Positions 18,311 through 38,331 of a stretch of DNA of 38,591 bases are shown here, piece by piece. The translations under genes were made by a program, and so were the position numbers. Position 1 is the stretch's first letter, and every line of letters begins with the position of its first letter. The DNA is from a virus. The notes under the pieces are model-generated. The model searched no databases. It was given only the letters and a program-made list of their open reading frames with translations, and had not been told where the DNA came from. The stretch spans positions 1-38,591 of the IMG/VR virus record IMGVR_UViG_3300025137_000099, one strand, 5' to 3'.

Positions 18311-18621
18311 TATTTACCTTTAGCCATATAGGCGGTCATTCCCATATATGCACCTACCACCCCTGCCTGACCTATGTAGAAAAGACCGAATAAATCCGAT
18401 AGGGCCTTGATCCGGCCATCAGGGAAGATCGGCAAGAAAACCATCAACGTAAAACCAATCATGGAAATCATCGCCACCCAGGCCATTCGACGCTGGGCAT
18501 CCGCTTTCTCATGCTGATCACGAACTTTCGCTAACGCGAGCTCCTGATCGGAAACCACCCCATCGCCGTCAACGTCAAGCTCGTTATGCGAGCTGTCGTC
18601 CTGTAACTTCTTTTGAGCCAT
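18310..18621 (-). CDS. EF-hand membrane protein (103 aa)
   Basis: Residues 16-27 (DVDGDGVVSDQE) form a canonical calcium-binding EF-hand loop with all ligand positions present. Two hydrophobic segments follow (VAMISMIGFTLMVFLPIF and LFYIGQAGVVGAYMGMTAYM). Proteins with an N-terminal EF-hand and two membrane helices occur next to terminase genes in marine phages. A calcium-responsive holin or membrane protein is a possible reading. ATG 18621 overlaps the terminase stop. Confidence 0.7.
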   Translation of the reverse strand: MAQKKLQDDSSHNELDVDGDGVVSDQELALAKVRDQHEKADAQRRMAWVAMISMIGFTLMVFLPIFPDGRIKALSDLFGLFYIGQAGVVGAYMGMTAYMAKGK

Positions 18622-20084
18622 TAGTAATACTCCCGTGGCCTTGGACCGGAGACGATCTCATCGTCTTCCTCGTCACTGTCCAAACGCAAAAACCCTCCTC
18701 TACGATAACGTATAAGAGCCATCGACATACTATCACAATAATCATCGTGATCACCATTAGGAAATGCAGCGCACTCATCGATTACTTCTTCCGAGAATTT
18801 CATCTCAGGCGCCCACACCATCCCTGACTCAAAGATCGGCGCCACCATGTGCATCCGCGTGTGCTTATCACGGCCCTTGGACGGCGTATAATTTACCACA
18901 GGAATCCCCATCGTCCGTAACTCGTCCGTGAGCGGCGTACCCGTAGCCTTCGCCTCAATAAGAATCATGTCCGGTTCCCAGTAGTTATACTCCTCCAACG
19001 CCTTGTTCTTCAGCTCAGGGAAATCCCAACGGCCTCGATGCGCATCCATCAGGATAATATGATCAGAACCACCCTCCTCCGGCTGGAAAACACCCCAGGT
19101 CGTAATAGCCGAGTAATCCGCAGTCTCCTTCTTGCTAAACGCCGTATCGTAACTCTGTATGATATAACTCACAGGAGGAATGTCCTCTTTCTCCCAGACG
19201 TTCCACCACTCCTTCTTGATTATAGCACCCTCTTCAGCAGTCGGATTCTGCTGCCATTGAGCATTCCACTTGGCCAAGGACAACGAAGCCTTGACCTTTA
19301 ACAACTCATCCTTGTTCCAAAACTCCGGCCACAGAACATTGCCGCTCGGCAAAATAGCAGGGAACTCAACAACCTCCCATTGATCCGACATCTTGTCAGA
19401 ACTCTGAGCCTTGATCAGTTTACCCGTCAAATCCTTCAAAGACCACCGAGTCATAACAACTACAATAGACCCGCCCGGTTGTAATCGCTGACGGGGCCCT
19501 GACGTGTACCACTCGTAGGCGTTTTCCATAGCCGATTCAGATAAGGCGTCCTGTTCCGAATGCGGGTCATCAATGATAAGAAGATCAGCACCTCGGCCCG
19601 TAATCGCACCGCCCACACCCGCAGCATAATATTCGCCACCTTGACCCGTTTCCCAACGTCCCGCCGCTTTTGAATCCACGCGTAAATCCACATCTGGAAA
19701 AATATCCCTGTACCGTTCCTCCTCCATAAGGTTACGAACCTTACGGCCAAACCGCACAGCTAACTCAGATGTGTGCGTCGTCTGAATAATCTTCAACGCC
19801 GGATTCTTGCCGATCAACCAAGCAGGCAATAAATAACTCGCAAACTCAGACTTCGTATGACGCGGAGGCATATTAATAATGACCCGTGAACCAGGAGTCA
19901 CAGACAACTTCTCATATTGTTGCGCAACCTGCTTGTGATGAACACCCTCAATAAATCCATCGTAAACGTAATTGACAAACTCCATAAAAGAAGATTGAGC
20001 ACGAGCACGAATAGATAAACGGTTCTTCGCTTGCTCCAGAGCAAAGACCTCACGCAGTACCTCTTCAGGGGCGTTTAAGCTCAT
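18621..20084 (-). CDS. terL: Terminase large subunit (487 aa)
   Basis: The ATPase half has the Walker A-like MPPRHTKSE (residues about 72-80) and Walker B with acidic pair LLIIDDPHSEQD (about 168-179). The nuclease half carries SYDTAFSKKETADYSAITTW, LIEAKATGTPL and HDDYCDSMSMAL, the expected RNase H-like acidic residues. It packages DNA into the procapsid through the portal. I chose ATG 20084 (MSLNAPEEV). The longer frame to 20195 runs through a strong hairpin and starts with an atypical sequence. No clear ribosome binding site precedes 20084. The small subunit lies 5 kb away. Confidence 0.9.
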   Translation of the reverse strand: MSLNAPEEVLREVFALEQAKNRLSIRARAQSSFMEFVNYVYDGFIEGVHHKQVAQQYEKLSVTPGSRVIINMPPRHTKSEFASYLLPAWLIGKNPALKIIQTTHTSELAVRFGRKVRNLMEEERYRDIFPDVDLRVDSKAAGRWETGQGGEYYAAGVGGAITGRGADLLIIDDPHSEQDALSESAMENAYEWYTSGPRQRLQPGGSIVVVMTRWSLKDLTGKLIKAQSSDKMSDQWEVVEFPAILPSGNVLWPEFWNKDELLKVKASLSLAKWNAQWQQNPTAEEGAIIKKEWWNVWEKEDIPPVSYIIQSYDTAFSKKETADYSAITTWGVFQPEEGGSDHIILMDAHRGRWDFPELKNKALEEYNYWEPDMILIEAKATGTPLTDELRTMGIPVVNYTPSKGRDKHTRMHMVAPIFESGMVWAPEMKFSEEVIDECAAFPNGDHDDYCDSMSMALIRYRRGGFLRLDSDEEDDEIVSGPRPREYY

Positions 20085-20143
20085 AAGAGAAACGTACACG
20101 GAACATGGTTCAATGACAATTACAATGAAATATTTGTTCAAAA

Positions 20144-20171
20144 CACTGTATACACCTTCGTGTACACAGTG
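20144..20171 (-). terminator. Strong hairpin upstream of the large terminase
   Basis: CACTGTATACAC and GTGTACACAGTG pair with a single mismatch around a CTTC loop. On the minus strand the stem is followed by TTTTGAAC, so it could end leftward read-through from the early region or act as a binding site. It lies 60 bases before the chosen terminase start. Confidence 0.5.
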
Positions 20172-20301
20172 CGCGGCGGCGGCAGGCCGACCCACCCGAT
20201 ATCAGGACTCTGGCAAAAATCGGGAACCGGTCTAAGTACCTAGGCCCGATATCTCGCCCATTAGGCGACTAAAATAAAATGGTTCAAGGTGCATAAACTT
20301 A

Positions 20302-20331
20302 TTGACTACTATACCATATTAATGGTAATGT
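20302..20331 (+). promoter_or_regulatory. Rightward early promoter with dyad operators
   Basis: TTGACT (20302-20307) and TAATGT (20326-20331) are separated by 18 bp. The spacer contains the dyad ACCAT-ATTA-ATGGT (20313-20326). A second dyad, TAATGTAC-TT-GTACATTA (20326-20343), overlaps the -10 and likely start site. It should serve the gene at 20413. The spacer dyad resembles those in other promoters of this window. Confidence 0.55.
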
Positions 20332-21017: not shown

Positions 21018-21148
21018 CGTCTGGGCGCCCAGCGCCGGACAGGCTCGAGCTTAATCCAATCTACTATATTACTTAATATATAACTATGGCCCTAGGGCCT
21101 AGGCCGGCGGCGGCCAACCCGACCTATCCCGACCCGACCCGTTTCCCA

Positions 21149-21175
21149 TAAAAAAAGGCCCCCAGTGTGGGGGCC
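21149..21175 (-). terminator. Terminator for leftward genes at 21199-22162
   Basis: GGCCCCC (21157-21163) and GGGGGCC (21169-21175) form a perfect stem with loop AGTGT. On the minus strand the stem runs directly into seven or more T. Between it and 21017 are GC-rich palindromes (GGCCCTAGGGCC) and CCCGACC repeats but no gene. Confidence 0.8.
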
Positions 21176-21198
21176 TGAAGTTTGGAGAGTAATTCAAT

Positions 21199-21405
21199 TT
21201 AGACGTTGATGTTTACCCGACCCATGCTCTCATAGCAATAGTTGCAACTCGTCTCATAAGGCCCATTGTAATTAACGCGCTCAATTATTCCTGTTCCATC
21301 ACATTCGAAGCACGCTGCATCCTCTATCTTTCTAGGTTTGGCAACAACACCGTTTCCAATATAGATCCCCGTCGCCCATGGGGGCGTCACTTGTGGCGTT
21401 TTCAT
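21199..21405 (-). CDS. Small zinc-binding protein (68 aa)
   Basis: FECDGTGIIERVNYNGPY followed by CNYC gives a CxxC...CxxC pair with the CxxCxGxG-like feature seen in DnaJ zinc domains. Last gene of a three-gene leftward operon. No family is recognised beyond the metal site. Confidence 0.6.
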   Translation of the reverse strand: MKTPQVTPPWATGIYIGNGVVAKPRKIEDAACFECDGTGIIERVNYNGPYETSCNYCYESMGRVNINV

Positions 21406-21407
21406 TT

Positions 21408-21860
21408 TTAAAGCCTTTCAATCTGCAATTTTGCATCAGGGTTTTCGGATAACCAATAATCGGGAATCCGGTCTAATTTTTCGGCGTAGGTGCAAGGGTC
21501 ATTTTTTGCGTCTTCGATCCAAGACCAATATTTTTGATCTTTGGCTATTTTTGCGCGTTTGGCTTTTTCTTTTTCTAGATCTTTCATATTATCCGGCGTA
21601 TCAATAACGCGCACTAGGTTTTTATAAACATTGCGCCCTTTCCGTCTTATTTTCTTTTCTTGTAAAACGTCTTCGGCATACATGCCCTCAGCCCATTCAA
21701 TATCTATCGTAAAAGTATGCTGCCCGCGTTTATTCCCATAACTCTCTTTTACAATTTGGCCAATGATTTGACGATTTCCCAGAAATTTAGGATTTCTGAA
21801 AGATCCGGCAAATACGGGTTCGGAAATTTCTATTTTCATTCCTGCAACTAGATTTGTCAT
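21408..21860 (-). CDS. Hypothetical protein (150 aa)
   Basis: The sequence has an N-terminal beta region (MKIEISEPVFAGSFRNPKFL), a central IDIEWAEGMYAEDVLQEKKI, and a Lys-rich helical stretch (DLEKEKAKRAKIAKDQKYWS). It overlaps the upstream gene by four bases. I recognise no domain. Confidence 0.55.
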   Translation of the reverse strand: MTNLVAGMKIEISEPVFAGSFRNPKFLGNRQIIGQIVKESYGNKRGQHTFTIDIEWAEGMYAEDVLQEKKIRRKGRNVYKNLVRVIDTPDNMKDLEKEKAKRAKIAKDQKYWSWIEDAKNDPCTYAEKLDRIPDYWLSENPDAKLQIERL

Positions 21861-22162
21861 GCTACTTCACCTACCATCAAGCTAAACATAAGATTGGGAT
21901 ATGCCTCTTGAAACTCAGGTGATGCATACGTGAGGGTATAATATCCGATTACATCAGTTTTATAGGTATCGCCGAATTCCCATGACCCATGAGTCGCGTC
22001 TGACTTTGCAGCAGTGTACCATCTTGCATATTTGTCTTCATTCTTCGGGAGCTTGTACGTTTTCAGAACGCGAAGTTCTACGGCACCAATAGCGCTATCG
22101 TCTATCTTGAAGGTGGCGTATGGGTTTTCGGTGTCTCGAGATTTTCCTAATGGGTTAGCCAT
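21857..22162 (-). CDS. Hypothetical early protein (101 aa)
   Basis: The protein contains YATFKIDDSAIGAVELRVL, KYARWYTAAKSDATHGSWEF and YYTLTYASPEFQEAYPNLMF. No domain is recognised. I chose ATG 22162 over ATG 22177. GGAG lies 9 bases before 22162, and the leader (CAACC..ATGGAG..TTATG) aligns with that of the 23032 gene, where the equivalent first ATG is not the start. It is driven by the leftward half of the divergent promoter at 22186-22226. Confidence 0.6.
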   Translation of the reverse strand: MANPLGKSRDTENPYATFKIDDSAIGAVELRVLKTYKLPKNEDKYARWYTAAKSDATHGSWEFGDTYKTDVIGYYTLTYASPEFQEAYPNLMFSLMVGEVA

Positions 22163-22185
22163 AACTTGATACTCCATAATGGTTG

Positions 22186-22226
22186 TTGACTATTAAGATA
22201 GTATCCCATTATAATGGCATAGTCAA
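22186..22226. promoter_or_regulatory. Divergent promoter module, copy 1
   Basis: An inverted repeat TTGACTAT (22186-22193) / ATAGTCAA (22219-22226) supplies a -35 box on each strand. Rightward: TTGACT, 18 bp, TATAAT (22210-22215). Leftward: TTGACT, 17 bp, TACTAT (22203-22198). The perfect palindrome CCATTATAATGG lies in the overlap. It serves 21857-22162 on the left and 22247-22441 on the right. Confidence 0.75.
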
Positions 22227-22246
22227 ATATTAAATGAGGTAACCAA

Positions 22247-22441
22247 ATGAAAAATTACTCTCTTAACTATGGTGATAATGCAGAGTGTGATGTTTGCTAT
22301 AGTGTATTCGACACACGAAGCAGTCAGTACGAAATAGTTAGTGATAATTGGGTATGTGATAGGTGCCTTGATCGTGACAATGAGGAACTAGCTGAAATGT
22401 TAGGCGTAGAAACATCCATTGTATCGGAGGCGAGAGCATAG
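22247..22441 (+). CDS. Small zinc-ribbon protein (64 aa)
   Basis: AECDVCYSVFDTRSSQYEIV followed by WVCDRCLDRDNEEL gives two CxxC knuckles. A GAGGT ribosome binding site precedes the ATG. It is monocistronic, between a divergent promoter and a bidirectional terminator. Such small ribbon proteins may modulate host polymerase or other proteins, but the function here is unknown. Confidence 0.65.
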   Translation: MKNYSLNYGDNAECDVCYSVFDTRSSQYEIVSDNWVCDRCLDRDNEELAEMLGVETSIVSEARA

Positions 22442-22472
22442 GATTGGAGTGACATGACCCGACCCCGACCAT

Positions 22473-22502
22473 AAAAAAAGGCCCCCGACTTGGGGGCCTT
22501 TT
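22473..22502. terminator. Bidirectional terminator between convergent genes
   Basis: GGCCCCC (22480-22486) and GGGGGCC (22492-22498) pair around GACTT. Seven A precede and four T follow, so it works for both the rightward gene ending at 22441 and the leftward gene ending at 22506. A CCCGACCCCGACC repeat lies immediately before it. Confidence 0.8.
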
Positions 22503-22505
22503 CTG

Positions 22506-22949
22506 TTATGCGGCTTTGCGTTTTCGTTGTTGCTCTATCAGGTGGTGAAGTTCACCCTCCATGATCAGAGTGTTCTTAGGTCCACCCTTCCCCCAATCAA
22601 CTTCGAATACCTCAACGTATAAATCGTCTAGGCCATCACGCTTATCGACCACGTACCAATACTCGGAATCGCTGGAGAATTGCCAAGGGTGTTCGGTATT
22701 GATAAGGCGAACACCACCACTGTTTCCTTTATTGGCAACAATAAAAGAAGCCGCGAAGCCATCAGCCTCAAAGCGTGGCAAGTCCCATGCATAAGAAAGC
22801 GCCTCACGAATCCAGACTAGGCCACCAGCTTCTTCGCCAGTGTGGCATTGAACATATGGATAACCGTCATGGTGCTTATAGACATGAACAGATCTCTTCT
22901 TGCCTCTAGTGAATGTATCGAGGAAAGTATAGCAAGCTCTGGTAGACAT
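22506..22949 (-). CDS. Hypothetical early protein (147 aa)
   Basis: The sequence contains STRACYTFLDTFTRGKKRSV, VYKHHDGYPYVQCHTGEEAG and WQFSSDSEYWYVVDKRDG. The pattern of HVYKHHDGYPY suggests a compact alpha-beta protein that I cannot name. I chose ATG 22949. AGAAGGAAAC precedes it and it lies just downstream of the leftward half of promoter copy 2, while the longer frame to 23417 crosses that promoter and the oppositely oriented Api92-like gene. Confidence 0.65.
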   Translation of the reverse strand: MSTRACYTFLDTFTRGKKRSVHVYKHHDGYPYVQCHTGEEAGGLVWIREALSYAWDLPRFEADGFAASFIVANKGNSGGVRLINTEHPWQFSSDSEYWYVVDKRDGLDDLYVEVFEVDWGKGGPKNTLIMEGELHHLIEQQRKRKAA

Positions 22950-22970
22950 AATTTTGTTTCCTTCTAGTTG

Positions 22971-23011
22971 TTGACTATCCCAATAATAAGGGATACTCTT
23001 CACATAGTCAA
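22971..23011. promoter_or_regulatory. Divergent promoter module, copy 2
   Basis: TTGACTAT (22971-22978) and ATAGTCAA (23004-23011) form the same 8-bp inverted repeat as copy 1. Rightward: TTGACT, 17 bp, TACTCT (22994-22999). Leftward: TTGACT, 17 bp, TATTAT (22988-22983). The spacer holds TCCC...GGGA. Downstream bases AGTCAACAACC match the leftward leader of copy 1. Confidence 0.75.
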
Positions 23012-23031: not shown

Positions 23032-23451
23032 ATGCCTAATTGGACAGCGAACACGCTTGAGATCACAGATAAGACTGAAGCCATGGCTTCCTTCAAGAAA
23101 TTTATGGGGGAGGACAATAACGGTTTCTGTTTCAAGAAACTTGTGCCACCACCAGCCGATATGTTTGAGGGAGACCTTGGCGACAAAGAACGTGCCGAAT
23201 GCGAAGATAAAGGAATTGCGAATTGGCGCGATTGGTGTCCTGAGAATTGGGACACCAAATGGAACGCTTGCGGTGTTACTTCTGAGGAGGAAACTTTTCG
23301 GGACGGCAAATGGACAACCATTACATACCAATTCAACACGGCATGGTCACCACCTCTTAAAGTGATTGACGCTTTGAGGAAGAAATTTCCAGACCTTGAA
23401 ATATCAGGAGGATACATAGATGAAGGATATGAAGGCTGTGGACCATTCTAA
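23032..23451 (+). CDS. Api92-like (DUF1281-type) ferredoxin-like-fold protein (139 aa)
   Basis: MPNWTANTLEITDKTEAMAS, CFKKLVPPPADMFEG, NWRDWCPENWDTKWNACGVT and FNTAWSPPLKVIDALRKKFP followed by GCGPF are the hallmarks of the Api92/DUF1281 family. This phage and plasmid family has an N-terminal ferredoxin-like domain and unknown function. A GGAG ribosome binding site precedes the ATG. The gene is driven by promoter copy 2 and followed by a hairpin. Confidence 0.8.
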   Translation: MPNWTANTLEITDKTEAMASFKKFMGEDNNGFCFKKLVPPPADMFEGDLGDKERAECEDKGIANWRDWCPENWDTKWNACGVTSEEETFRDGKWTTITYQFNTAWSPPLKVIDALRKKFPDLEISGGYIDEGYEGCGPF

Positions 23452-23453
23452 CA

Positions 23454-23476
23454 AAGGAGGGGTGAAAGCCCCCCTT
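23454..23476 (+). terminator. Hairpin after the Api92-like gene
   Basis: AAGG(A)GGGG pairs with CCCCCCTT around TGAAAG with one bulged A, followed by GCTCTATTTAG. It lacks a clean T run, so termination would be partial. A related hairpin follows the next gene at 23765-23780. Confidence 0.45.
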
Positions 23477-23500
23477 GCTCTATTTAGAAAGGATAGCAAA

Positions 23501-23749
23501 ATGGATTTTTCAAAACTCTTTCCTCTATATCATAAAGCACTCTTACTTTCTGGTGATCCGCACTGGGGAACTGAAGAGCAAATCAACGCTGAAAATGCGT
23601 TCTTTTCAGAAGCGAAAGCACTAGCAGAAAAGACGGGACTCGCTGAAGAGTACCAAGAGCATTGTGACGGTTTATTAAAAGCCAACGCCGAAGAAATGTT
23701 ACTGTTTACGGTGAATTTCTTCTTAGACCAAGGTTCGGTTGATGCCTGA
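23501..23749 (+). CDS. Small acidic helical protein (82 aa)
   Basis: The sequence has MDFSKLFPLYHKALLLSGDP, EEQINAENAFFSEAKALAEK and EEMLLFTVNFFLDQGSVDA. ATG 23501 is preceded by AAGGATAG. The longer frame upstream to 23420 passes through the hairpin and is not preferred. No family recognised. Confidence 0.6.
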   Translation: MDFSKLFPLYHKALLLSGDPHWGTEEQINAENAFFSEAKALAEKTGLAEEYQEHCDGLLKANAEEMLLFTVNFFLDQGSVDA

Positions 23750-23924: not shown

Positions 23925-24079
23925 TTCCCCTATCCGTGGTCCAAGCCTTAACTCGAGAGGCCGCCGGCCACCTGTCCGACCCGACCTCGAGCTCTAGTCT
24001 TAACGACCTATGCCGGAGGTTTTTAAATCAACACTCCCTGCCTGGGAGGCCCTGGCCCGACCCCGACTATAAACATTGA
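23921..24079 (+). CDS. Small hypothetical protein ending in repeat-encoded tail (52 aa)
   Basis: ATG 23921 overlaps the previous stop (ATGA) and has GGAGGGGAGAG upstream. It encodes MIPLSVVQALTREAAGHLSD and LNDLCRRFLNQHSLPGRPW. The C-terminus PDPDYKH is encoded by a CCCGACCCCGAC repeat, so the repeat probably entered the 3' end. No family is recognised. Confidence 0.5.
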   Translation: MIPLSVVQALTREAAGHLSDPTSSSSLNDLCRRFLNQHSLPGRPWPDPDYKH

Positions 24080-24137
24080 CCCCCGACCCCGACTTGGCAT
24101 ATACTTAAAATCTTCATTGTCTCGATTGCCCTAGAAT

Positions 24138-24180: not shown

Positions 24181-24224
24181 TTGCATTATCCCTTTTTTAT
24201 GGTACGGTTGCTTAGTCAATCCAA
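24181..24224 (+). promoter_or_regulatory. Promoter module, degenerate copy 3
   Basis: TTGCAT (24181-24186) and TACGGT (24203-24208) are 16 bp apart, with CCCTTTTTTATGG between, and TTAGTCAA plus CAACAACC follow. The layout matches copies 1 and 2, but the left arm is degraded so no leftward promoter remains, which fits the absence of a leftward gene here. Confidence 0.55.
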
Positions 24225-24242
24225 CAACCGAACAGGTGTATT

Positions 24243-24896
24243 ATGAAAATTAGATTCGTTGAGAAGTCGCGCAATATAAAAACGGGTCCTATCCCCGTCA
24301 CGACTACTGAAGAAAAGAGCTGTCCAACAAGCTGCCCATTAAAAAACGGCGGCGGCTGCTATGCCGAGTACGGCCCTCTCAAACACCGTTGGGCCGAGGT
24401 CGATGCATTCGCGGACAATTGGTCCGAGACCATGGCGCGGATATCCGATCTGCCCAACGGTCAAATTTGGAGGCATAACCAGGCTGGGGACCTACCGGGG
24501 GTAGGCGAACGAATCCATAAAGGCAAGCTTTCCGATCTGGTAAAAGCCAACACTGGCAAGCGTGGGTTCACCTACACTCATAAGACCACGACCCCTGCAC
24601 AATTGGCCAGTGTCAAATGGGCAAACGAAAACGGTTTTACCGTTAACCTGTCGGCCAACAATCTAGAACATGCCGACAAGCTTTTGGATAGTGGGGCGGG
24701 GCCAGTATGTGTTACACTGCCCTATGACTTCCAAGGCACAAAAACTGAAACACCAAACGGGGCACCCGTCCGAGTCTGCCCCGCTCAATATAAAGATACC
24801 AGCTGTAAAGAATGCCAATTATGCCAACACCAGCGGCGGCGCGTGGTTGTTGGCTTCGTCGGGCATGGCCCCGCGAAAAGACGCGTTGCCGCATAA
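24243..24896 (+). CDS. Cys-rich, putative Fe-S or metal protein (217 aa)
   Basis: An N-terminal Cys cluster (SCPTSCPLKNGGGCYAEYGP) and a C-terminal one (VCPAQYKDTSCKECQLCQ) flank a TIM-barrel-like middle with SDLPNGQIWRHNQAGDLPG, GFTYTHKTTTPAQ and NEKG-type strands. Phage proteins with this layout are known to me, annotated only as uncharacterised. The spacing of Cys suggests an iron-sulphur cluster or zinc. It has its own promoter copy and terminator. A reaction cannot be assigned. Confidence 0.7.
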   Translation: MKIRFVEKSRNIKTGPIPVTTTEEKSCPTSCPLKNGGGCYAEYGPLKHRWAEVDAFADNWSETMARISDLPNGQIWRHNQAGDLPGVGERIHKGKLSDLVKANTGKRGFTYTHKTTTPAQLASVKWANENGFTVNLSANNLEHADKLLDSGAGPVCVTLPYDFQGTKTETPNGAPVRVCPAQYKDTSCKECQLCQHQRRRVVVGFVGHGPAKRRVAA

Positions 24897-25005: not shown

Positions 25006-25177
25006 TCCGACTTACTTGAAACCCGACCCCGACCCCGACTTACTTAGAACCCGACCCGACCCCGACCCGACCAAGGTCCAAGGCCCGACTCCAAAGTTCA
25101 TCAAGACCCGACCCCGACCACAAGCAATCAACGGTCAGTTTAGCCCCCGACCCCGACCCCCGAACCGCCAGACCGTG
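25006..25177. repeat. Cluster of CCCGACCCCGAC repeats
   Basis: At least six occurrences of CCCGACC(CCGAC) lie in this stretch. A longer direct repeat is also present: CGACTTACTTGAAACCCGAC followed 30 bp later by CGACTTACTTAGAACCCGAC. The cluster forms the 3' end of the VRR-NUC gene on the minus strand, where it encodes Gly/Ser-rich GSGSG and GVGSGSK. Further isolated copies lie near 21122, 22457, 23978, 24055 and 24081, and a related run near 27346. Confidence 0.8.
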
Positions 25178-26101: not shown

Positions 26102-26179
26102 AGTACCTCCTATATAAAGAGCATTTTACAAAAGTATTACAAAAATTAAAATGTGAAATTTGCCCACGGCTAGAAAAAA

Positions 26180-26302
26180 GTGTAACGAAACAGCTGTTTT
26201 TGCTACAAGTGTAACGAGTAGTGTAACGAGTTGATGACTACTAAACTATTGTACTTATTATATCTTTGGTCCATGAACCATGCTCCGTTACACTTGTTAC
26301 AC
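26180..26302. repeat. Iteron-like GTGTAACGA cluster
   Basis: Direct copies are GTGTAACGA at 26180-26188, GTGTAACGAG at 26209-26218 and GTGTAACGAG at 26221-26230. Inverted copies are CCGTTACAC at 26285-26293 and TTGTTACAC at 26294-26302. ACAAGTGTAACGAG near 26205 and its inverse CTCCGTTACACTTGT near 26284 make a larger imperfect inverted repeat. Confidence 0.75.
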
Positions 26303-26386
26303 TTTTTTTCCCTATTTTTTTATTTTTCAAACTGTTTTTTATATTTGACCCCTATACAGTAACAAGTGCCCCCACTACGTATTCGC

Positions 26387-26416
26387 TTGACCCACATAAG
26401 TGGGATAGACTATAGT
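26387..26416 (+). promoter_or_regulatory. Rightward promoter with CCCAC-ATAA-GTGGG operator
   Basis: TTGACC (26387-26392) and TATAGT (26411-26416) are 18 bp apart. A dyad CCCACATAAGTGGG occupies 26391-26404. The arrangement parallels the other promoters here, with a CC..GG dyad between the boxes. It should drive the small genes from 26448 through the methyltransferase and lysin. Confidence 0.65.
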
Positions 26417-26729: not shown

Positions 26730-26959
26730 CATTCAAGGTTTCAGCATGGAACATGGACGGAACGGACATTGTGGAGATGGACGGTCCTATATCTCCTGAC
26801 AGGATTCATGAGTCTGAAATTGAACCTGTTGATTTACGGTGTCCACATTGCTTCAAGAAAAGCACAGTTGGTCACTTTAACTGGGACGCTTTAGTTTGCG
26901 GAGGCTGTAAGGAAGAGGTTGATCGTTTTGATTGGCTAATTCCTTTAGGTGAAAGATGA
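26726..26959 (+). CDS. Zinc-ribbon protein (77 aa)
   Basis: The N-terminal beta segment (MTFKVSAWNMDGTDIVEMDG) precedes a zinc ribbon LRCPHCFKKSTVGHFNWD and LVCGGCKEEVDRFDW. It is coupled at both ends by ATGA overlaps to a charged peptide and an XRE-type regulator. It might help the neighbouring regulator or bind nucleic acid. Confidence 0.6.
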   Translation: MTFKVSAWNMDGTDIVEMDGPISPDRIHESEIEPVDLRCPHCFKKSTVGHFNWDALVCGGCKEEVDRFDWLIPLGER

Positions 26960-27171
26960 TAGATACGAGACGTTATTCTCCGCTGGTTAATGAGCTCAAG
27001 CAGATCATGAAGGAATCAGGACGCACCAGTCTTAATATTGCGGAAGAGTCTGGTGTTTCTTCTAGTACGTTGAGCACATGGTTTCATCGTCACAATCCGT
27101 CACTTCCGAACTTTGAGAATGTACTTAGAGAACTGGGATATTCTTTGAAAATCGAGAAGAATGAAACTTAA
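26956..27171 (+). CDS. XRE-family (Cro/CI-like) transcription regulator (71 aa)
   Basis: Residues about 8-66 form a helix-turn-helix of the HTH_3 type: LVNELKQIMKESGRTSLNIA, EESGVSSSTLSTWFHRHNPS, LPNFENVLRELGYSLKI. Length is that of a DNA-binding domain alone, as in Cro. It is the only classical repressor-like protein in the window. It is a candidate to bind the CC..GG dyads in the promoters at 20302, 22186, 22971 and 26387. It overlaps the methyltransferase start by 11 bases. Confidence 0.75.
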   Translation: MIDTRRYSPLVNELKQIMKESGRTSLNIAEESGVSSSTLSTWFHRHNPSLPNFENVLRELGYSLKIEKNET

Positions 27172-31357: not shown

Positions 31358-31687
31358 ATGACGGTCTATCTTACTCAAGAAAATCCACGATTTAACGTAC
31401 TAAAAGCAACAAAGTACGGGCAGCTGGAAAGCCTCACAAACACAGACGATCAAATCTACACAAGCGCAAACCGTGTGGTCGCAAAAATAAAGCGCGGCCT
31501 CAAAACGTTTGGGGATGACGATTGGCTGTTGTTGTTGGGTGACCCAGCGGTCATTGGTGTCTGCTTCGCTATTGCAGCGGAGAGAAACGGTGGCCGTGTC
31601 AACATTCTGAAGTGGGACAAGTTTGAGAAGGCGTATTACCCCATCAATGTCCGAATCAAGTCGGGCATTGGTGATTTAGAAACTTAA
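31358..31687 (+). CDS. Replication-operon protein of unknown function (109 aa)
   Basis: MTVYLTQENPRFNVLKATKY is followed by GDDDWLLLLGDPAVIGVCFA and GGRVNILKWDKFEKAYYPIN. It is a compact alpha-beta protein conserved in pattern with the first gene of replication modules in marine phages I know of. GAAAGAGA serves as ribosome site. The opening position in the operon suggests a replication accessory role. Confidence 0.65.
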   Translation: MTVYLTQENPRFNVLKATKYGQLESLTNTDDQIYTSANRVVAKIKRGLKTFGDDDWLLLLGDPAVIGVCFAIAAERNGGRVNILKWDKFEKAYYPINVRIKSGIGDLET

Positions 31688-31707
31688 AACCTGAAGAGGA
31701 GAAACTT

Positions 31708-32271
31708 TTGACAGATATACTTGATACAATTGTGGCAGATGCCACAGCGTTTGAAAACCTGACCACACAAAAGGGCTCTGAGCTTTCTGAACTTATTCGT
31801 CAAGCCGCAGCAATAAACGAGACTGTAGCTTTAGCGGAAGATGCAGTGAAGAGCCTCAAAAAAAGCCGAGACAAGTATTTGTACGAATTGATCCCTGCAA
31901 AGATGTCAGAGGTCGGTATGGACAAGGTAGAGGTGGACGGCAACTCTGTTTCCCTTACCACATTTGTTTCAGCCACGATGCCAAAGGATCCGTTGCAGAA
32001 GGATTTAGCAATCCAACATTTACGATCTATCGGCTGTGGTGACTTCATCAAGAATAAACTGGAAGTGACGTTTGGCCTCACGCAAGACAACGAGGCCAAG
32101 GCACTTGAGGATGATCTGTTGAAGGCTGGGCACGATACCAATGCCAAGATTTGGATTGAGCCCATGACACTCAAGAAACTTGCAAAGGAAAGACTGCAAG
32201 CCGGTCAGGAGTTCGATATCGAACTATTTAACGCATACATTGGAACAGTAGCTAAGATTAAAGGAGCATGA
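31708..32271 (+). CDS. Conserved coiled-coil replication-module protein (187 aa)
   Basis: It starts at TTG 31708 behind a perfect GAGGAGA site. The N-terminal half is coiled coil (ELIRQAAAINETVALAEDAV, KSLKKSRDKYLYELIPAKMS). The C-terminal half has FVSATMPKDPLQKDLAIQHL, GCGDFIKNKLEVTFG and MTLKKLAKERLQAGQEFD. Proteins with this layout precede SSB-like genes in marine phages. They are uncharacterised but could be annealing or SSB-partner factors. Confidence 0.7.
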   Translation: MTDILDTIVADATAFENLTTQKGSELSELIRQAAAINETVALAEDAVKSLKKSRDKYLYELIPAKMSEVGMDKVEVDGNSVSLTTFVSATMPKDPLQKDLAIQHLRSIGCGDFIKNKLEVTFGLTQDNEAKALEDDLLKAGHDTNAKIWIEPMTLKKLAKERLQAGQEFDIELFNAYIGTVAKIKGA

Positions 32272-32273
32272 AC

Positions 32274-33047
32274 ATGGCTAAGAAAAACGGAAGTGGACTA
32301 CCAGCGGAACTTATGGAAGCCTTTGAGGCTGACAGTGGAAGTGGATTTGAGGGCGTTACGACAGACGATCTTCAGATACCTTTTATACGTCTCATTCAAG
32401 CGTTGTCCCCTCAAGTGGACAAGAACGACAGTAACTTCATTTCGGGCAGTGGAGCGGGGGACATCTTTAACACGGTGACCAAGCAGCACTGGGATGGTGA
32501 CGAGGGACTGATCGTTCTGCCGTCGTACTTCCAGATGAAATTGCTTGAGTTTATTCCTAGATCTCAAGGCGGCGGTTTCGTGGGCGAACTGTCACCTGCC
32601 AGTGACGATGTCAAGAATGCGTATCGTGACGAGGATACAGGTATGGAGTTATTGACTTCGGGTAATGAACTGGTTCGCACGGCCCAATACTACGTGAAGG
32701 TTGTTCATGAGGATGGAAACCTTGAGAGTGCGATCCTCGACATGAAGAAGTCGCAACTGAAGAAGTCACGTGCTTGGCTGACGTTGATGCAGATGCAAAA
32801 GCACAACGGCAAAGCGTTGCCTATGTTTGCGAACACGTATCGACTAACCAGTGTATCGGAGAAGAACGATAAAGGTAACTGGTACAACTGGAGCATCACA
32901 AAAGAAGGCTCGGTGCCTTCCATCGAAGCGTACAATGAAGCGAAAGAGATGCATCAGTCTGTCAAGGACGGTGAGCTATCTATCGCAGCTCCTCAAAACT
33001 TAGAACAGATTTCTAATCAGGAATCTGACTCTGACGTTCCGTTCTAG
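32274..33047 (+). CDS. Single-stranded DNA-binding-like protein (257 aa)
   Basis: The protein has ADDLQIPFIRLIQALSPQV-like start (here TTDDLQIPFIRLIQALSPQV), GLIVLPSYFQMKLLEFIPR, YYVKVVHEDGNLESAILDMK and KSQLKKSRAWLTLMQMQKH. It ends in the acidic tip ESDSDVPF, a mimic of the bacterial SSB tail that recruits partner proteins. ATG 32274 is preferred because AGGAG is seven bases away. ATG 32268 is too close. It coats single-stranded DNA during replication (inferred from tail and context). Confidence 0.7.
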   Translation: MAKKNGSGLPAELMEAFEADSGSGFEGVTTDDLQIPFIRLIQALSPQVDKNDSNFISGSGAGDIFNTVTKQHWDGDEGLIVLPSYFQMKLLEFIPRSQGGGFVGELSPASDDVKNAYRDEDTGMELLTSGNELVRTAQYYVKVVHEDGNLESAILDMKKSQLKKSRAWLTLMQMQKHNGKALPMFANTYRLTSVSEKNDKGNWYNWSITKEGSVPSIEAYNEAKEMHQSVKDGELSIAAPQNLEQISNQESDSDVPF

Positions 33048-33055
33048 GGAAGGAT

Positions 33056-33088
33056 GACCCCTAAACGGTACGGGACCGTTTAGGGGTC
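33056..33088 (+). terminator. 14-bp perfect hairpin between SSB-like and primase genes
   Basis: GACCCCTAAACGGT and ACCGTTTAGGGGTC pair around ACGGG and are followed by TATTTTC. It lies nine bases after the SSB-like stop and ends ten bases before the primase ATG, which has no ribosome binding site. It may act as attenuator or processing site to make more SSB-like protein than primase. Confidence 0.6.
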
Positions 33089-33097
33089 TATTTTCGG

Positions 33098-34627
33098 ATG
33101 ACGGAAGCACAGAGATATTTTGACCTTTTTAAAGGGTTTAAGGGAGCGCATGGTCAGACAGAGGTTCTGGACCATCAGCGCCACGGCAAGCAGAAAGCCA
33201 AGAGCTTCATTGTCCGTGAACCGTTGACTCTGGAATTGGTTCAAGGCCACCTTGATGGCCAGCAAGGAATCGGTAGCATACCTATCGATGAGGATAACAG
33301 TTGCAGCTTCGGGGCATTGGACATTGACGATTACAATCTGGATCTGATTGCTCTCTGTAAGAAGTCTGCCAAGCTAAAATTACCTTTGACCCTGTGCCGT
33401 TCAAAGTCGGGTGGCGCTCATTTATACATATTTTTATCTGAGAAAGTGCCAGCGGTGGAACTCAAGGACAAGCTGGCTGAGTTCGCATCTGCTTTAGGTT
33501 TCGGCACATGTGAGATATTTCCCAAACAAGAAGAGGTCATCGTAGAGCGCGGTGACGTAGGAAACTTTATCAATTTACCTTACTTTCAAGCGGAGATTAC
33601 TACACGATTCGCTTACGACAGGAATGGTAAGGAGCTGACGTTATCGGAGTTTATGGATCTGGCAGAGAAGAGCAAGATCACACTCAAGCAGTTGAGGGAC
33701 TTTGAATTAGGATCTAACTCAGATGTTTTGCCTAATGGTCCACCGTGCTTGCAGCAGCTTACGGAGCGGGGAATTCCAGAGGGTGGACGTAATAATACGA
33801 TGATTAATATCGGTGTGTATTACAAACTATCGTCGCCAGAGAATTGGAAAGATCTTCTTGAGAAGCATAACCAGAACTACTGCAATCCATCGCTGCCAGC
33901 CAAAGAGATCGTGACGATACAGGAACAGCTGGAGAAGAAAGAATACTTCTATACGTGTAAACAGGAACCGATACAGAGCCACTGCAATAAGGCGCTGTGC
34001 AGATCCAGACAGTTTGGTGTCGGTGGCAGTCAGTCCTTTCCTACGATTGGAGGGTTGACCGTTGTCTTGTCGGAACCTCCAGTTTGGTTCGTGGACGTTG
34101 ATGGGTCGCGGCTGGAGCTTACGACCAAGCAGCTACAGATGCAGATGGACTTTCAACGGGCTTGCATGGAACAGATGTACCAGATGCCAGCACGTATGAA
34201 GGATCCTGATTGGCGCGACATGATCGACAATCTGCTGACTACAGCAACGCATATACAGGTGCCAGAAGAATTAACAACCAAGGGGCAGTTTAACGAACTT
34301 TTAGAGACGTTCTGCACCTCTCGTATACGTGCAACTTCGGAAGAGGAGCTTTTAACAGGTAAGCCATGGACCGTGGACGGTCATACGTACTTCAAGCTGA
34401 GTTCTCTACAGGAGTTCTTGAAGCGTAAAGGATTTACCAACTATTCACGTGGGCAGATTACGGAGCGGTTGAAGGAGCTCAACAACGGTCAGGAGTCGGA
34501 CAAGCAGTATCGACTAAAGGACAACAAGGGCAAGTGGAGAACGGTTAGGGTCTGGTTTGTCCCGGAGATGGAAGAACTAGAAGTTGACTTGAAAAAGCCA
34601 ATCTTCTCTGAGGAGGTGCCGTTTTGA
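33098..34627 (+). CDS. Archaeo-eukaryotic-type primase, TOTE-like (509 aa)
   Basis: The catalytic core has GALDIDDY (residues 73-79, metal ligands), SKSGGAHLY (102-110) and GNFINLPYF (155-163), typical for AEP primases of the TOTE/primpol group. A helical segment (GGRNNTMINIGVYYKLSSPE) and a Cys cluster (CKQEPIQSHCNKALC) follow. The C-terminus ends in KKPIFSEEVPF, an SSB-like acidic tip. It would synthesise primers for PolA and the helicase encoded next. ATG 33098 has no ribosome site, but an in-frame stop at 33062 excludes a longer start. Confidence 0.85.
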   Translation: MTEAQRYFDLFKGFKGAHGQTEVLDHQRHGKQKAKSFIVREPLTLELVQGHLDGQQGIGSIPIDEDNSCSFGALDIDDYNLDLIALCKKSAKLKLPLTLCRSKSGGAHLYIFLSEKVPAVELKDKLAEFASALGFGTCEIFPKQEEVIVERGDVGNFINLPYFQAEITTRFAYDRNGKELTLSEFMDLAEKSKITLKQLRDFELGSNSDVLPNGPPCLQQLTERGIPEGGRNNTMINIGVYYKLSSPENWKDLLEKHNQNYCNPSLPAKEIVTIQEQLEKKEYFYTCKQEPIQSHCNKALCRSRQFGVGGSQSFPTIGGLTVVLSEPPVWFVDVDGSRLELTTKQLQMQMDFQRACMEQMYQMPARMKDPDWRDMIDNLLTTATHIQVPEELTTKGQFNELLETFCTSRIRATSEEELLTGKPWTVDGHTYFKLSSLQEFLKRKGFTNYSRGQITERLKELNNGQESDKQYRLKDNKGKWRTVRVWFVPEMEELEVDLKKPIFSEEVPF

Positions 34628-36153
34628 AGATTCAGAAGACATATTTAGGTCCACCAGGGACAGGCAAGACACAGAACAACTCCAACCTTATACGGGAGTA
34701 CATACGTCAGGGCATTGAACCAGAGCGTATTGCCGGTGTGTCCTTTACACGTAAGGCGGCACGGGAAAGCTGTGAACGAGTATGCAGGGACACAGGTCTG
34801 GAAGAGGCAAGGCTACCACACTTCAGGACGCTGCACTCTATTGCTTTTCGTGAGGGAGGGTATACCTCCAATGATGTTATTGGTGGAGCGGACTTTGCAA
34901 AGATCGGTAGCGAGATAGGACTTTCATTTGGCAGACGGTCCTCTAATAACATGGAGACAGACTTTGATACGTTAGGCGTGAGCCAAGGTGATTTTTACAT
35001 GAGCCTGTACCACTTAGCGCGGAGCAAGGAGATACCGTGGGAAGAGATGTTCAGAAGGGCTGAGAACTACAATCTGCACTATTCCGAGATGAAGCGCCTT
35101 GTGGACACATACGAAGACTACAAGATTGAGTACAATAAGATCGACTTTACGGATATGATTGAGGAGTTTATCAAGCGGGGCCATCCGCTAGACGTTGATG
35201 CTCTGATTGTCGATGAGGCACAGGATCTATCTACCTTACAATGGAAGATGATAGACGTTCTGAGAGAGACGCCTGATATACAGATATTCAGCGGTGATGA
35301 TGATCAGGCAATTATGGGCTTTCAAGGTGCGGATGTGTCAGCATTCCTCAATGCAACCGAAGATCGTGAGGTTCTGAACAAGAGTTATCGTCTTCCAAGT
35401 AGTATATGGGATGTGGCCCAGAGTGTCGTTTCCCGTATTGAGGGTCGGGCACCCAAGGTGTGGAGTCCTAAAGACGAGGAAGGGACGGTTCAGCAACATC
35501 AAAGCATGTGGGATGTTCCCTTGGATTCTGGAGATTGGTGTATTCTGGCTCGAACCAATCGCATCGCATCACAGTATGCAGATGCTTTGCAAGATGAGGG
35601 CTGGGTGTATAGTCGCAACGGGCACCCTAGTATTCCACCGAGGATTTACGATGCCATTCTTTCTTGGGAAGACTTGACCAAGGGCAAGGCTGTTTCGGCG
35701 TCAGAAATACGAAACATCTATACGCACATGAAGGCAAATGCTGGATACAAGAAAGGTTTCGGCCCAAGGTCTAAAGCTTTGTTGGGAATTGACGAGGAAG
35801 CGTTTGTGAATATGGACTACGCCAGAGATCACCTTGGCCTGTTACAGGTTGGAGATATCAGATGGCATCAGGTCTTGGACAAGGTTACACGTGACATGCA
35901 GCATTACTTGCTGAACGCACTTCGGCGCGGTGACAACGTCAAGAACCCAAGAATCAAGGTAAGCACGATCCACTCTATGAAGGGTGGTGAGGCAGACAAT
36001 GTACTGGTTATTCCTGACTTGTCTTATGCCGCAGATCGTGAGTATCAGAAGGATCCGTCAACAGAGCATCGTGTGTACTATGTTGCGGTAACAAGGGCAA
36101 AAAAGACCCTTCACATAATGGAACCCACAACGGATAAGTATTACACAATATGA
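34624..36153 (+). CDS. UvrD/Rep-type SF1 helicase (509 aa)
   Basis: Walker A LGPPGTGKT (residues 8-16), GVSFTRKAA, motif II LIVDEAQDLS, motif III SGDDDQAIMGFQGAD, and C-terminal ISTIHSMKGGEADNVLV-like and YYVAVTRAKKTLH motifs define an SF1A 3'-5' helicase. It starts at TTG 34624 behind a perfect GAGGAGGTG, overlapping the primase stop as TTGA. In the absence of a visible DnaB-type helicase it is probably the replicative helicase of this phage. Confidence 0.85.
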   Translation: MKIQKTYLGPPGTGKTQNNSNLIREYIRQGIEPERIAGVSFTRKAARESCERVCRDTGLEEARLPHFRTLHSIAFREGGYTSNDVIGGADFAKIGSEIGLSFGRRSSNNMETDFDTLGVSQGDFYMSLYHLARSKEIPWEEMFRRAENYNLHYSEMKRLVDTYEDYKIEYNKIDFTDMIEEFIKRGHPLDVDALIVDEAQDLSTLQWKMIDVLRETPDIQIFSGDDDQAIMGFQGADVSAFLNATEDREVLNKSYRLPSSIWDVAQSVVSRIEGRAPKVWSPKDEEGTVQQHQSMWDVPLDSGDWCILARTNRIASQYADALQDEGWVYSRNGHPSIPPRIYDAILSWEDLTKGKAVSASEIRNIYTHMKANAGYKKGFGPRSKALLGIDEEAFVNMDYARDHLGLLQVGDIRWHQVLDKVTRDMQHYLLNALRRGDNVKNPRIKVSTIHSMKGGEADNVLVIPDLSYAADREYQKDPSTEHRVYYVAVTRAKKTLHIMEPTTDKYYTI

Positions 36154-36416
36154 AACCTGATGAGATTTTACAGAAGTGTCTAGACTTGGTCACAGGGGAA
36201 CGTGCCTCTCAGCATGGAGACTACACGGCTATGCATGAGCGATTTGCTGAACTGGTGACTGTTTACCTTGGTCATCCTGTAACTTCAGCACAAGCTGCGT
36301 TTATAATGGTTTTGCTGAAGGTTGCCAGACATGAGAACGGATCCTTCAACCCAGACGATGGGGTTGATGGGACGGCATACACAGCTATATGGGCGGCACT
36401 TTGCAATGGAAGATGA
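36150..36416 (+). CDS. DUF6378-like protein (88 aa)
   Basis: ITGERASQHGDYTAMHERFA-like sequence (here VTGERASQHGDYTAMHERFA) and KVARHENGSFNPDDGVDGTA with YTAIWAALC are the pattern of DUF6378, a small helical phage family probably related to MazG-type nucleotide pyrophosphohydrolases. It overlaps both neighbours (ATGA at 36150 and 11 bases at the end). A role in nucleotide pool management next to PolA is inferred. Confidence 0.75.
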   Translation: MKPDEILQKCLDLVTGERASQHGDYTAMHERFAELVTVYLGHPVTSAQAAFIMVLLKVARHENGSFNPDDGVDGTAYTAIWAALCNGR

Positions 36417-38331
36417 TCTGTTTGACGAGACAATCTGGACACCCCCTGAGTCTTTGCCGGACCTGTCAGGCGAGAAACTTATCTGCATAGACGTAGAGAC
36501 TAAAGACCCCAACCTGATCTCCAAGGGTCCCGGTTGGTCAAGGGACGATGGACACCTGATCGGTATCGCTGTAGCTACAGAAAGATGGCAAGCGTATCTG
36601 CCTATCGCTCATGATAGCTTCGGCAACATGTCAAAGACAAACGTGGTCAAGTGGCTCAAGGCACAACTAAACCATGGCATGGATGTCGTGTTTCACAACG
36701 CACAGTACGACTTAGGATGGTTGAAGACTGAGGGCCTTGAGGTCAAGGGCCGTGTTTTAGATACGATGATTGCCGCTCCTCTTTTGGACGAGAACAGATT
36801 CAGCTACAGCTTGGATGCTTTGGGCAAGACGTATCTCGGCAAGCGTAAGCAAGAGGACGATCTACGTAGAACCGCTGCTCAACATGGCGTAGATGCCAAG
36901 AAGGAGATGTGGAAGTTACCTCCTGCCAGAGTTGCTTTATATGCAGAGACAGACGCTCGATTGACGTTTGATCTGTGGCATGTACTCAAGCGGAAGCTCA
37001 AAGAGGATAACTGCCTAGACATTCTCAAAATGGAATTGGACTTGCTGCCTCTTATCTTTGAGATGAAATGCAAGGGTGTTCGTGTCGATTTGGACAAAGC
37101 TCATAAAACCAAGAAGCTCTTACAGTCCAAGGAAGATGCGCTCTGTAAGGTTCTCAAGGACGAGACAGGGGTAGACATTGAACCGTGGAACGCGAGAAGT
37201 CTTGCGAAGATCTTCGATCACTATAAATTGTCCTTTGATAGGACGGAGAAAACCGAAGAGCCCAGTTTTACAAAGAAGTTTTTGTCAGAGCATGATCATC
37301 CAGTAGCGAAGAATATCCTTGATATACGTGAATATAACAAAGCGAACACAACGTTTGTTGAGACAATTCTCAGTCATCAGCATGATGGCCGTATTCACTG
37401 TCAGTTCAATCAGCTGCGCTCAGATGGAGGTGGGACCGTGTCTGGAAGATTCTCATCCAGCCACCCTAATTTGCAGCAGGTTCCCTCTCGACACCCACAA
37501 ATTAAAGAACTTATTAGAGGACTTTTTATTCCAGAGGAAGGAACAAAGTGGGGGAGCTTTGACTACAGTTCCCAAGAGCCCAGATGGCTGATGCACTACG
37601 CCTCTCTTACGTCGCCTATGTCTACGGACGAGAAGGTCGTTGACATCGTGAAAGCGTATCATGATGAAGATGTAGACTTTCATCAGATCATGGCAGAGAT
37701 AGCTGGCGTTTCAAGATCACAGGCAAAAACCATAAACCTAGGCGTTATGTACGGCATGGGTGTGGGCAAGTTATCTTCTGTGCTTGGTAACATATCGTTC
37801 CAAGAAGCCAAAGCGATTCGGGATGAGTACAACGAGAAGGTTCCGTTCATTCGCGACCTAGCATCCATGGTTACTAGAACAGCGGAGAAACGTGCGGAAC
37901 TCCGCACAATGTTAGGCCGTAAGTGTCGTTTTCCAATGCGGGAACTCAAGGGCTATTCAAAGACTATGAAGAAGCCGATCCATGCAGAAGCTTTAGAGGC
38001 ACAGTGGGAAGACATTCTGAACACGCCAGAAGAGGAGCGCGACAGGAAGTGGCGTAGCAAGAACCCAAACCTGTATCAGGTAGCGTTCACGTATAAGGCG
38101 CTTAACAGGCTCATACAGGCGTCAAGCGCGGATCAGACCAAGCAAGCCATGCTGGATTGTGCAGCCAAGGGCCATGTTCCAATGCTCACGGTCCATGATG
38201 AACTGTGCTTCTCAATAGAGGGCGGTGAGGTGCCTGAGATTAAGGATTTGATGGAGCAGTGTGTGCCGAAGCTCAACATACCTGCCAGAGTTGATGTAGG
38301 TGTCGGAGAGAACTGGGGAGACGCCAAGTAG
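36406..38331 (+). CDS. Family A DNA polymerase with 3'-5' exonuclease (641 aa)
   Basis: Exonuclease motifs ICIDVETK (D29, E31), VVFHNAQYDLGWL and YAETDARLTFDL, then polymerase motif A FDYSSQEPR, motif B RSQAKTINLGVMYG (R437, K441, L445, Y449) and motif C TVHDEL near residue 600 are complete. The position equivalent to E. coli PolI Phe762 is Leu445. I chose ATG 36406 because residues before it fall in another gene. Replicates phage DNA with primase and helicase of the same operon. Confidence 0.9.
   Translation: MEDDLFDETIWTPPESLPDLSGEKLICIDVETKDPNLISKGPGWSRDDGHLIGIAVATERWQAYLPIAHDSFGNMSKTNVVKWLKAQLNHGMDVVFHNAQYDLGWLKTEGLEVKGRVLDTMIAAPLLDENRFSYSLDALGKTYLGKRKQEDDLRRTAAQHGVDAKKEMWKLPPARVALYAETDARLTFDLWHVLKRKLKEDNCLDILKMELDLLPLIFEMKCKGVRVDLDKAHKTKKLLQSKEDALCKVLKDETGVDIEPWNARSLAKIFDHYKLSFDRTEKTEEPSFTKKFLSEHDHPVAKNILDIREYNKANTTFVETILSHQHDGRIHCQFNQLRSDGGGTVSGRFSSSHPNLQQVPSRHPQIKELIRGLFIPEEGTKWGSFDYSSQEPRWLMHYASLTSPMSTDEKVVDIVKAYHDEDVDFHQIMAEIAGVSRSQAKTINLGVMYGMGVGKLSSVLGNISFQEAKAIRDEYNEKVPFIRDLASMVTRTAEKRAELRTMLGRKCRFPMRELKGYSKTMKKPIHAEALEAQWEDILNTPEEERDRKWRSKNPNLYQVAFTYKALNRLIQASSADQTKQAMLDCAAKGHVPMLTVHDELCFSIEGGEVPEIKDLMEQCVPKLNIPARVDVGVGENWGDAK

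What the first reader, a model, noticed from the sequence alone, without database searches (positions are those of the whole stretch)
22186..23011. Repeated divergent promoter/operator module
Two copies (22186-22226 and 22971-23011) of a TTGACTAT/ATAGTCAA inverted repeat each place a consensus -35 on both strands, with 17-18 bp to a -10 on each strand. Downstream leaders also match (AGTCAACAACC, then GGAG). A degenerate one-way copy lies at 24181. Five early genes thus share one control element. Phage modular accessory genes acquired with identical bidirectional promoters would be a neat expression cassette.
Basis: seen in the sequence. Interest (0 to 1): 0.75.

Follow-up and report, generated by a model that had tools for sequence, protein, structure and literature searches.

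The report
Two-way promoters at swappable phage cassettes
Marine phages related to pelagiphages carry, usually twice, a compact symmetric promoter that appears to drive genes in both directions just upstream of their packaging gene, and related phages swap the genes on either side while keeping the promoter.

Summary
TTGACTAT-N25-ATAGTCAA occurs exactly at 22186-22226 and 22971-23011 and nowhere else in the window (0 of 100 shuffles reach two). Each copy has -35 and -10 boxes on both strands; a degraded one-way copy lies at 24181. In 177 related loci GTTGAC-N(30-33)-GTCAAC occurs 32 times (controls 0-3), usually two per genome, 1-4.5 kb upstream of terL, never in 745 kb of replication loci. 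One-way promoters keep the leader but lack the GTTG prefix on their -35. A divergent gene is present in 69 of 79 records with the leader-like upstream arm and 3 of 27 without (independent: 13/16 vs 2/16, p=2e-4). Nested -10 boxes exceed shuffles in both directions. Flanking proteins form 41 families in 27 pairings; at c1 relatives keep promoter and ribosome site but carry unrelated genes from the start codon on. Transcription, timing and any regulator are untested. A new variant of a known kind.

The parts
22186..22226 (.). Element c1, symmetric divergent promoter: + strand -35 22186-22191, -10 TATAAT 22210-22215; - strand -35 22226-22221, -10 TACTAT 22203-22198 (or the overlapping GATACT of the ATGGGATACT extended -10)
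   Evidence: conserved in L089, L098, L100
22181..22191 (-). Leader AGTCAACAACC of the 21857 gene, predicted 5' end of its mRNA; overlaps the + strand -35 of c1
   Evidence: start site inferred from the -10 distance
22971..23011 (.). Element c2: + strand -35 22971-22976, -10 TACTCT 22994-22999 (or GATACT 22992-22997); - strand -35 23011-23006, -10 TATTAT 22988-22983. With flanks, a 12-bp inverted repeat GTTGTTGACTAT/ATAGTCAACAAC
   Evidence: orthologous copies in L089, L098, L189
23006..23016 (+). Leader AGTCAACAACC of the 23032 gene; its complement holds the - strand -35 of c2
22967..22975 (-). Leader GTCAACAAC of the 22506 gene; its complement holds the + strand -35 of c2
24181..24229 (+). 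Element c3, one-way promoter: -35 TTGCAT 24181-24186, -10 TACGGT 24203-24208, leader AGTCAATCCAACAACC 24214-24229, for the 24243 gene
   Evidence: leader kept upstream of seven of the eight closest orthologues
21857..22177 (-). 106-aa gene driven leftward from c1 (first of a likely run with 21408-21860 and 21199-21405); no family match
   Evidence: its family pairs with seven partner families
22247..22441 (+). 64-aa gene driven rightward from c1; replaced by unrelated 74-aa and 159-aa genes in L100 and L089
22506..22949 (-). 147-aa gene driven leftward from c2; missing beside c2 in L089
23032..23451 (+). 139-aa gene driven rightward from c2 (DUF1281_C / Api92-like domain), followed by 23420-23749
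24243..24896 (+). 217-aa DUF7227 gene (phrog_2554) driven by c3
22469..22499 (.). Hairpin AAAAAAAGGCCCCCGACTTGGGGGCCTTTT, terminator-like on both strands, between the two divergent cassettes
   Evidence: D5; -22.9 kcal/mol, z -4.2
21146..21176 (.). Sister hairpin terminator closing the left cassette
   Evidence: D5; z -4.4

Best explanation
Each full element is a pair of host-type (sigma-70-like) promoters on opposite strands, nested face to face so that they fire outward. The -35 boxes sit in the outer arms and the -10 boxes (often ATGG[G/T]ATA-type, extended) lie side by side in the middle. Predicted start sites fall in or just before the far arm, about 30 bp apart, so every transcript begins (A)GUCAACAAC, followed 21-28 nt later by the start codon. 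Because the complement GTTGTTGAC contains the -35 TTGAC, one 9-mer serves as -35 for one gene and as the first transcribed bases of the other. That double duty accounts for the inverted repeat and its fixed 30-33 bp spacing. The elements drive small accessory cassettes bounded by two-way hairpin terminators next to terL, and relatives exchange the genes while keeping promoter, leader and ribosome site. Shown: sequence, conservation, spacing, both -10 boxes, partner shuffling. Inferred: transcription in both directions, start sites, the leader's role, homologous exchange at the element.
For: -35 to leader distance is 34-38 bp in two-way and one-way copies alike, i.e. -35 to +1 geometry. The weaker of the two -10 scores averages 4.50 against 2.77 +/- 0.18 in shuffled spacers; both score at least 5 in 12 of 22 against 0.5. 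A divergent gene is present in 69 of 79 records with a leader-like upstream arm and 3 of 27 without; strictly independent 13/16 vs 2/16, p=2e-4. A promoter definition that ignores the leader still finds GTCAA leaders at most one-way promoters outside coding DNA, read by eye. Elements number 34 in terL loci and 0 in 745 kb of polA loci. Partner genes fall into 27 family pairs; homology at c1 stops at the start codon.
Against: No transcript data. c2+ has a weak -10 and c1+ a degenerate leader. What selects GTCAACAAC is unknown; a regulator binding the arms would also conserve it. Two arm positions are slightly more complementary than chance (p 0.013 and 0.015 of eight tested). Two two-arm copies (L163, L166) have no gene found on one side. 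The leader set was largely found by searching for the leader, so its invariance there is partly by construction.
Confidence: 0.72

Rival explanations
1. The arms are the two half-sites of an operator: a phage regulator binds GTTGTTGAC/GTCAACAAC over the -35 and +1 of both promoters and switches the cassettes off (or on) together.
For: Arms cover -35 and +1, an ideal repression site. Mycobacteriophage ESAS, found by the same pattern, has longer symmetric arms on one-way promoters, and its authors suggest a repressor (PMC11373665). The window encodes an HTH_3 protein at 26956-27171.
Against: Arms do not covary beyond GTTGAC. One-way promoters lack the mirrored upstream half. The HTH protein has at best weak relatives in the fetched loci, whose flanks may not reach it. 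The only terL relative in bacterial genomes is a 3.3-kb contig of a SAR86 MAG, so no sign of lysogeny.
Confidence: 0.2
2. The leader works as RNA: GUCAACAAC at the mRNA 5' end is a translation or stability tag, perhaps read by a phage factor, and the promoter symmetry follows from it. This can hold together with the best explanation.
For: Leader kept in one-way copies and at a constant 21-28 nt from the start codon; the leader region is unstructured.
Against: No test of RNA function was possible; a DNA-level role in promoter escape fits equally.
Confidence: 0.3
3. The inverted repeat acts as an RNA hairpin or mobile-element end (terminator, processing site, recombinase site) and the promoter look is incidental.
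For: Read-through RNA over c2 would fold strongly (-21.2 kcal/mol, z -4.4); genes at the element are exchanged.
Against: c1 shows no excess folding (z -0.19). No T run follows; -10 boxes are enriched on both strands; arms do not covary; no recombinase was recognised beside the copies in the window.
Confidence: 0.04

Closest known systems
Bidirectional sigma-70 promoters (Warman et al. 2021, cited in PMC10268837 and PMC12825309)
   Same: Pseudo-symmetric DNA that lets RNA polymerase start outward on both strands.
   Different: There a shared -10 gives start sites usually 18 bp apart (7-25 bp by definition). Here separate adjacent -10 boxes and mirrored -35 boxes put predicted starts about 30 bp apart, and the repeated 5' leader is an added feature.
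Extended start-associated sequences (ESAS) of cluster K mycobacteriophages (PMC3203893, PMC11373665)
   Same: Repeated ~46-bp intergenic promoter with 17-18 bp spacing and an inverted repeat; the same GTTGTTGAC/GTCAACAAC ends at the same spacing.
   Different: ESAS mostly face one way, have longer mirrored arms (15-17 bp) and sit over the SAS GGGATAGGAGCCC, which is absent here. Likely convergent; common descent not tested.
PeSL promoter-terminator cassettes of T4-type phages (Arbiol 2010, Comeau 2014, as cited in PMC4503421)
   Same: Repeated regulatory joints at which small genes are shuffled between related phages.
   Different: Here the joint is a two-way promoter and terminators lie between cassettes, apart from it.
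Intergenic repeats of halovirus HF2 (PMC8707807)
   Same: Repeated intergenic sequences shown to carry promoters, the start site within a conserved motif; some active both ways.
   Different: Archaeal TATA/BRE promoters, unrelated sequence.

Membership tests
Bidirectional (shared -10) promoters | -10 sequence shared by both strands, start sites 7-25 bp apart | tested here: not met
   In c2 the -10 boxes are 22983-22988 and 22994-22999, separate; predicted starts about 30 bp apart (sequence; definition)
Bidirectional (shared -10) promoters | Transcription observed in both directions | not testable with these tools
   No transcript data for this phage; both -10 boxes enriched over shuffles
Mycobacteriophage ESAS | Located just upstream of SAS GGGATAGGAGCCC | tested here: not met
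   One 2-mismatch hit inside a gene at 24283, 0.63 expected by chance
Mycobacteriophage ESAS | -35/-10 with 17-18 bp spacing inside a 15-17 bp inverted repeat | tested here: inconclusive
   Spacing fits; the repeat is 8 bp at c1, 12 bp at c2, and its inner part is not consistently mirrored in relatives
T4 PeSL cassettes | Early promoter joined to a stem-loop terminator in one repeated unit | tested here: not met
   Terminators lie at 21146-21176 and 22469-22499, some 240 bp or more from the two-way promoters
T4 PeSL cassettes | Neighbouring genes shuffled among relatives at the motif | tested here: met
   27 family pairs among 41 families; homology stops at the start codon at c1 and c2

The most novel reading that the evidence does not exclude
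A phage-wide cassette joint in which one 9-mer is at once -35 box, mRNA 5' tag and recombination homology: newly acquired genes inserted at the start codon receive promoter, leader and ribosome site ready-made, and a phage factor reading the 5' tag or the arms controls all cassettes together.
Probability: 0.25. Interest if true: 0.72.

Novelty: new variant of a known kind. Interest (0 to 1): 0.52.

Why it matters
It gives a simple rule for finding transcription starts and accessory-gene slots in a widespread, mostly uncultured marine phage group, and a clear case of a promoter staying put while the genes around it turn over. The double use of one arm as -35 and leader is a compact design that can be tested with a few point mutations, and the same arm sequence in mycobacteriophage ESAS suggests that unrelated phages reached it separately.

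Tried and rejected
(1) Pattern with a 6-bp gap: no match, wrong spacing. (2) Near-DNA search of phage records with 10 kb: no match. (3) Plain promoter scan: no more sites than shuffles, so not used as proof. (4) Long-arm operator: rejected as the main reading because arms do not covary and one-way copies lack the mirror half. (5) Hairpin reading: c1 does not fold better than shuffles. (6) HTH protein 26956 as regulator: few and weak relatives, left open. (7) Element in cultured or named relatives: absent from the fetched parts of HTVC023P, HTVC027P, 023Pt_psg01 and DSL-LC04. (8) Fourth copy at 20302 (TTGACTACTATACCATATTAATGGTAATGT, upstream of 20413): promoter-like but without the leader; not counted. 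(9) Literature search for the motif letters: the listed papers were unrelated. (10) The leader window was too short, so its printed tally understates leaders; its rows were read by eye, and searches were used for counts.

Full report
What is there. The window is a whole IMG/VR virus record of 38,591 bases. Its terL matches Pelagibacter phages HTVC023P/HTVC027P and phage 023Pt_psg01 at 59-61% and its DNA polymerase at 45-47%, so it belongs near the HTVC023P-type group; those genomes average 58.8 kb (PMC9599517), so this record may be a fragment. Structural genes run leftward from terL (18621-20195), replication genes rightward (31358-38331), and small genes fill the space between terL and terS (25407). 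The two symmetric elements and the one-way copy lie in that space.

Anatomy. Each full copy has TTGACTAT at both ends facing inward, 25 bp apart. On each strand a -10 lies 17-18 bp after the -35. The -10 boxes sit side by side in the middle. The expected start sites fall in or just before the opposite arm, so transcripts should begin (A)GUCAACAAC. c1 rightward has a perfect TATAAT but a degenerate leader; c2 rightward has a weak -10.

Conservation. Protein searches brought in relatives. In 177 loci (1.67 Mb), GTTGAC-N-GTCAAC with any gap of 15-60 gives 33 hits, 32 of them at gaps 30-33; reversed and scrambled inverted-repeat controls give 0-3. In terL loci most genomes with the element have two, 0.9-4.5 kb upstream of terL, none downstream in the loci tabulated; 80 polymerase loci (745 kb) have none. 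Base composition differs widely among carriers (G+C 37-55% of the loci).

Why promoters, and why the arms do two jobs. In 106 oriented records (32 strictly independent) the -35 to leader distance is 34-38 bp, the -35 to +1 geometry, for two-way and one-way promoters alike, and the leader mostly lies 21-28 nt before the start codon. In 22 independent two-arm copies the spacer holds a -10 for both directions far above shuffled spacers. If the arms were an operator dyad, both halves should persist on one-way promoters. They do not: of 79 records whose upstream arm is leader-like, 69 have a divergent gene; of 27 whose upstream arm is not, 3 do (independent: 13/16 against 2/16, p=2e-4). The full-set p-value counts two-way elements twice and should not be used. 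A promoter definition that ignores the leader still lands on GTCAA leaders at most one-way promoters outside coding DNA, by reading the rows.

Cassette exchange. Proteins on either side of the elements form 41 families in 27 pairings; the family of the 21857 gene pairs with seven others. At c1 the window, L100 and L089 are near identical through the left gene's start, the promoter and the right gene's ribosome site, and then carry unrelated proteins from the start codon on (64, 74 and 159 aa; no blastp match). At c2 the right-hand sequence differs among the window, L189 and L089 from the start codon on, and in L089 the left gene is gone, its leader running into a terminator hairpin. Hairpins that look like terminators in both directions lie between the cassettes. 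Homologous exchange at the element is the natural inference but was not shown.

Specificity. Another divergent gene pair in the window (31281/31358) and a promoter at 26387 lack arms and leader, so the element marks a set of genes rather than all divergent starts.

Other phages. Both orientations of one element can count, so this is a rough figure. Some hits carry the SAS GGGATAGGAGCCC of cluster K mycobacteriophages, i.e. they are ESAS, which the Adephagia authors describe as a SigA-like promoter within an inverted repeat, perhaps repressed through it (PMC11373665). There the arms are mirrored further and mostly face one way, so a regulator is more likely in that case than here.

Limits. No transcription data exist for this phage, the cultured relatives examined lack the element, host and timing are unknown, and the leader's function is not established. 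The only terL relative in bacterial genomes was on a 3.3-kb contig of a SAR86 MAG, which does not establish a host.

Noticed in passing
22457-22471, 24055-24095, 25027-25159: CCCGACCCCGAC repeats, seven copies of a 15-mer at gene ends; relatives carry longer CGGGTCGGGTCGGGT runs beside one-way promoters.
   Followed up: partly
26160-26310: Repeats of AGTGTAACGA and its inverse CGTTACACTT in a noncoding stretch right of terS, possibly an origin or packaging region.
   Followed up: no
24243-24896: DUF7227 / phrog_2554 protein with a CPTSCPLKNGGGCY cysteine motif, with relatives in many viral contigs; function unknown.
   Followed up: no
20302-20331: Promoter-like TTGACT-18-TAATGT with a near palindrome ACCATATTAATGGT, upstream of the 20413 gene; no leader.
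   Followed up: partly
L303 4636-6799; L313 6078; L297 9797; L301 2234: Other phages with GTTGTTGAC/GTCAACAAC arms at the same spacing around a likely promoter, four copies in L303: a recurring phage promoter design.
   Followed up: no
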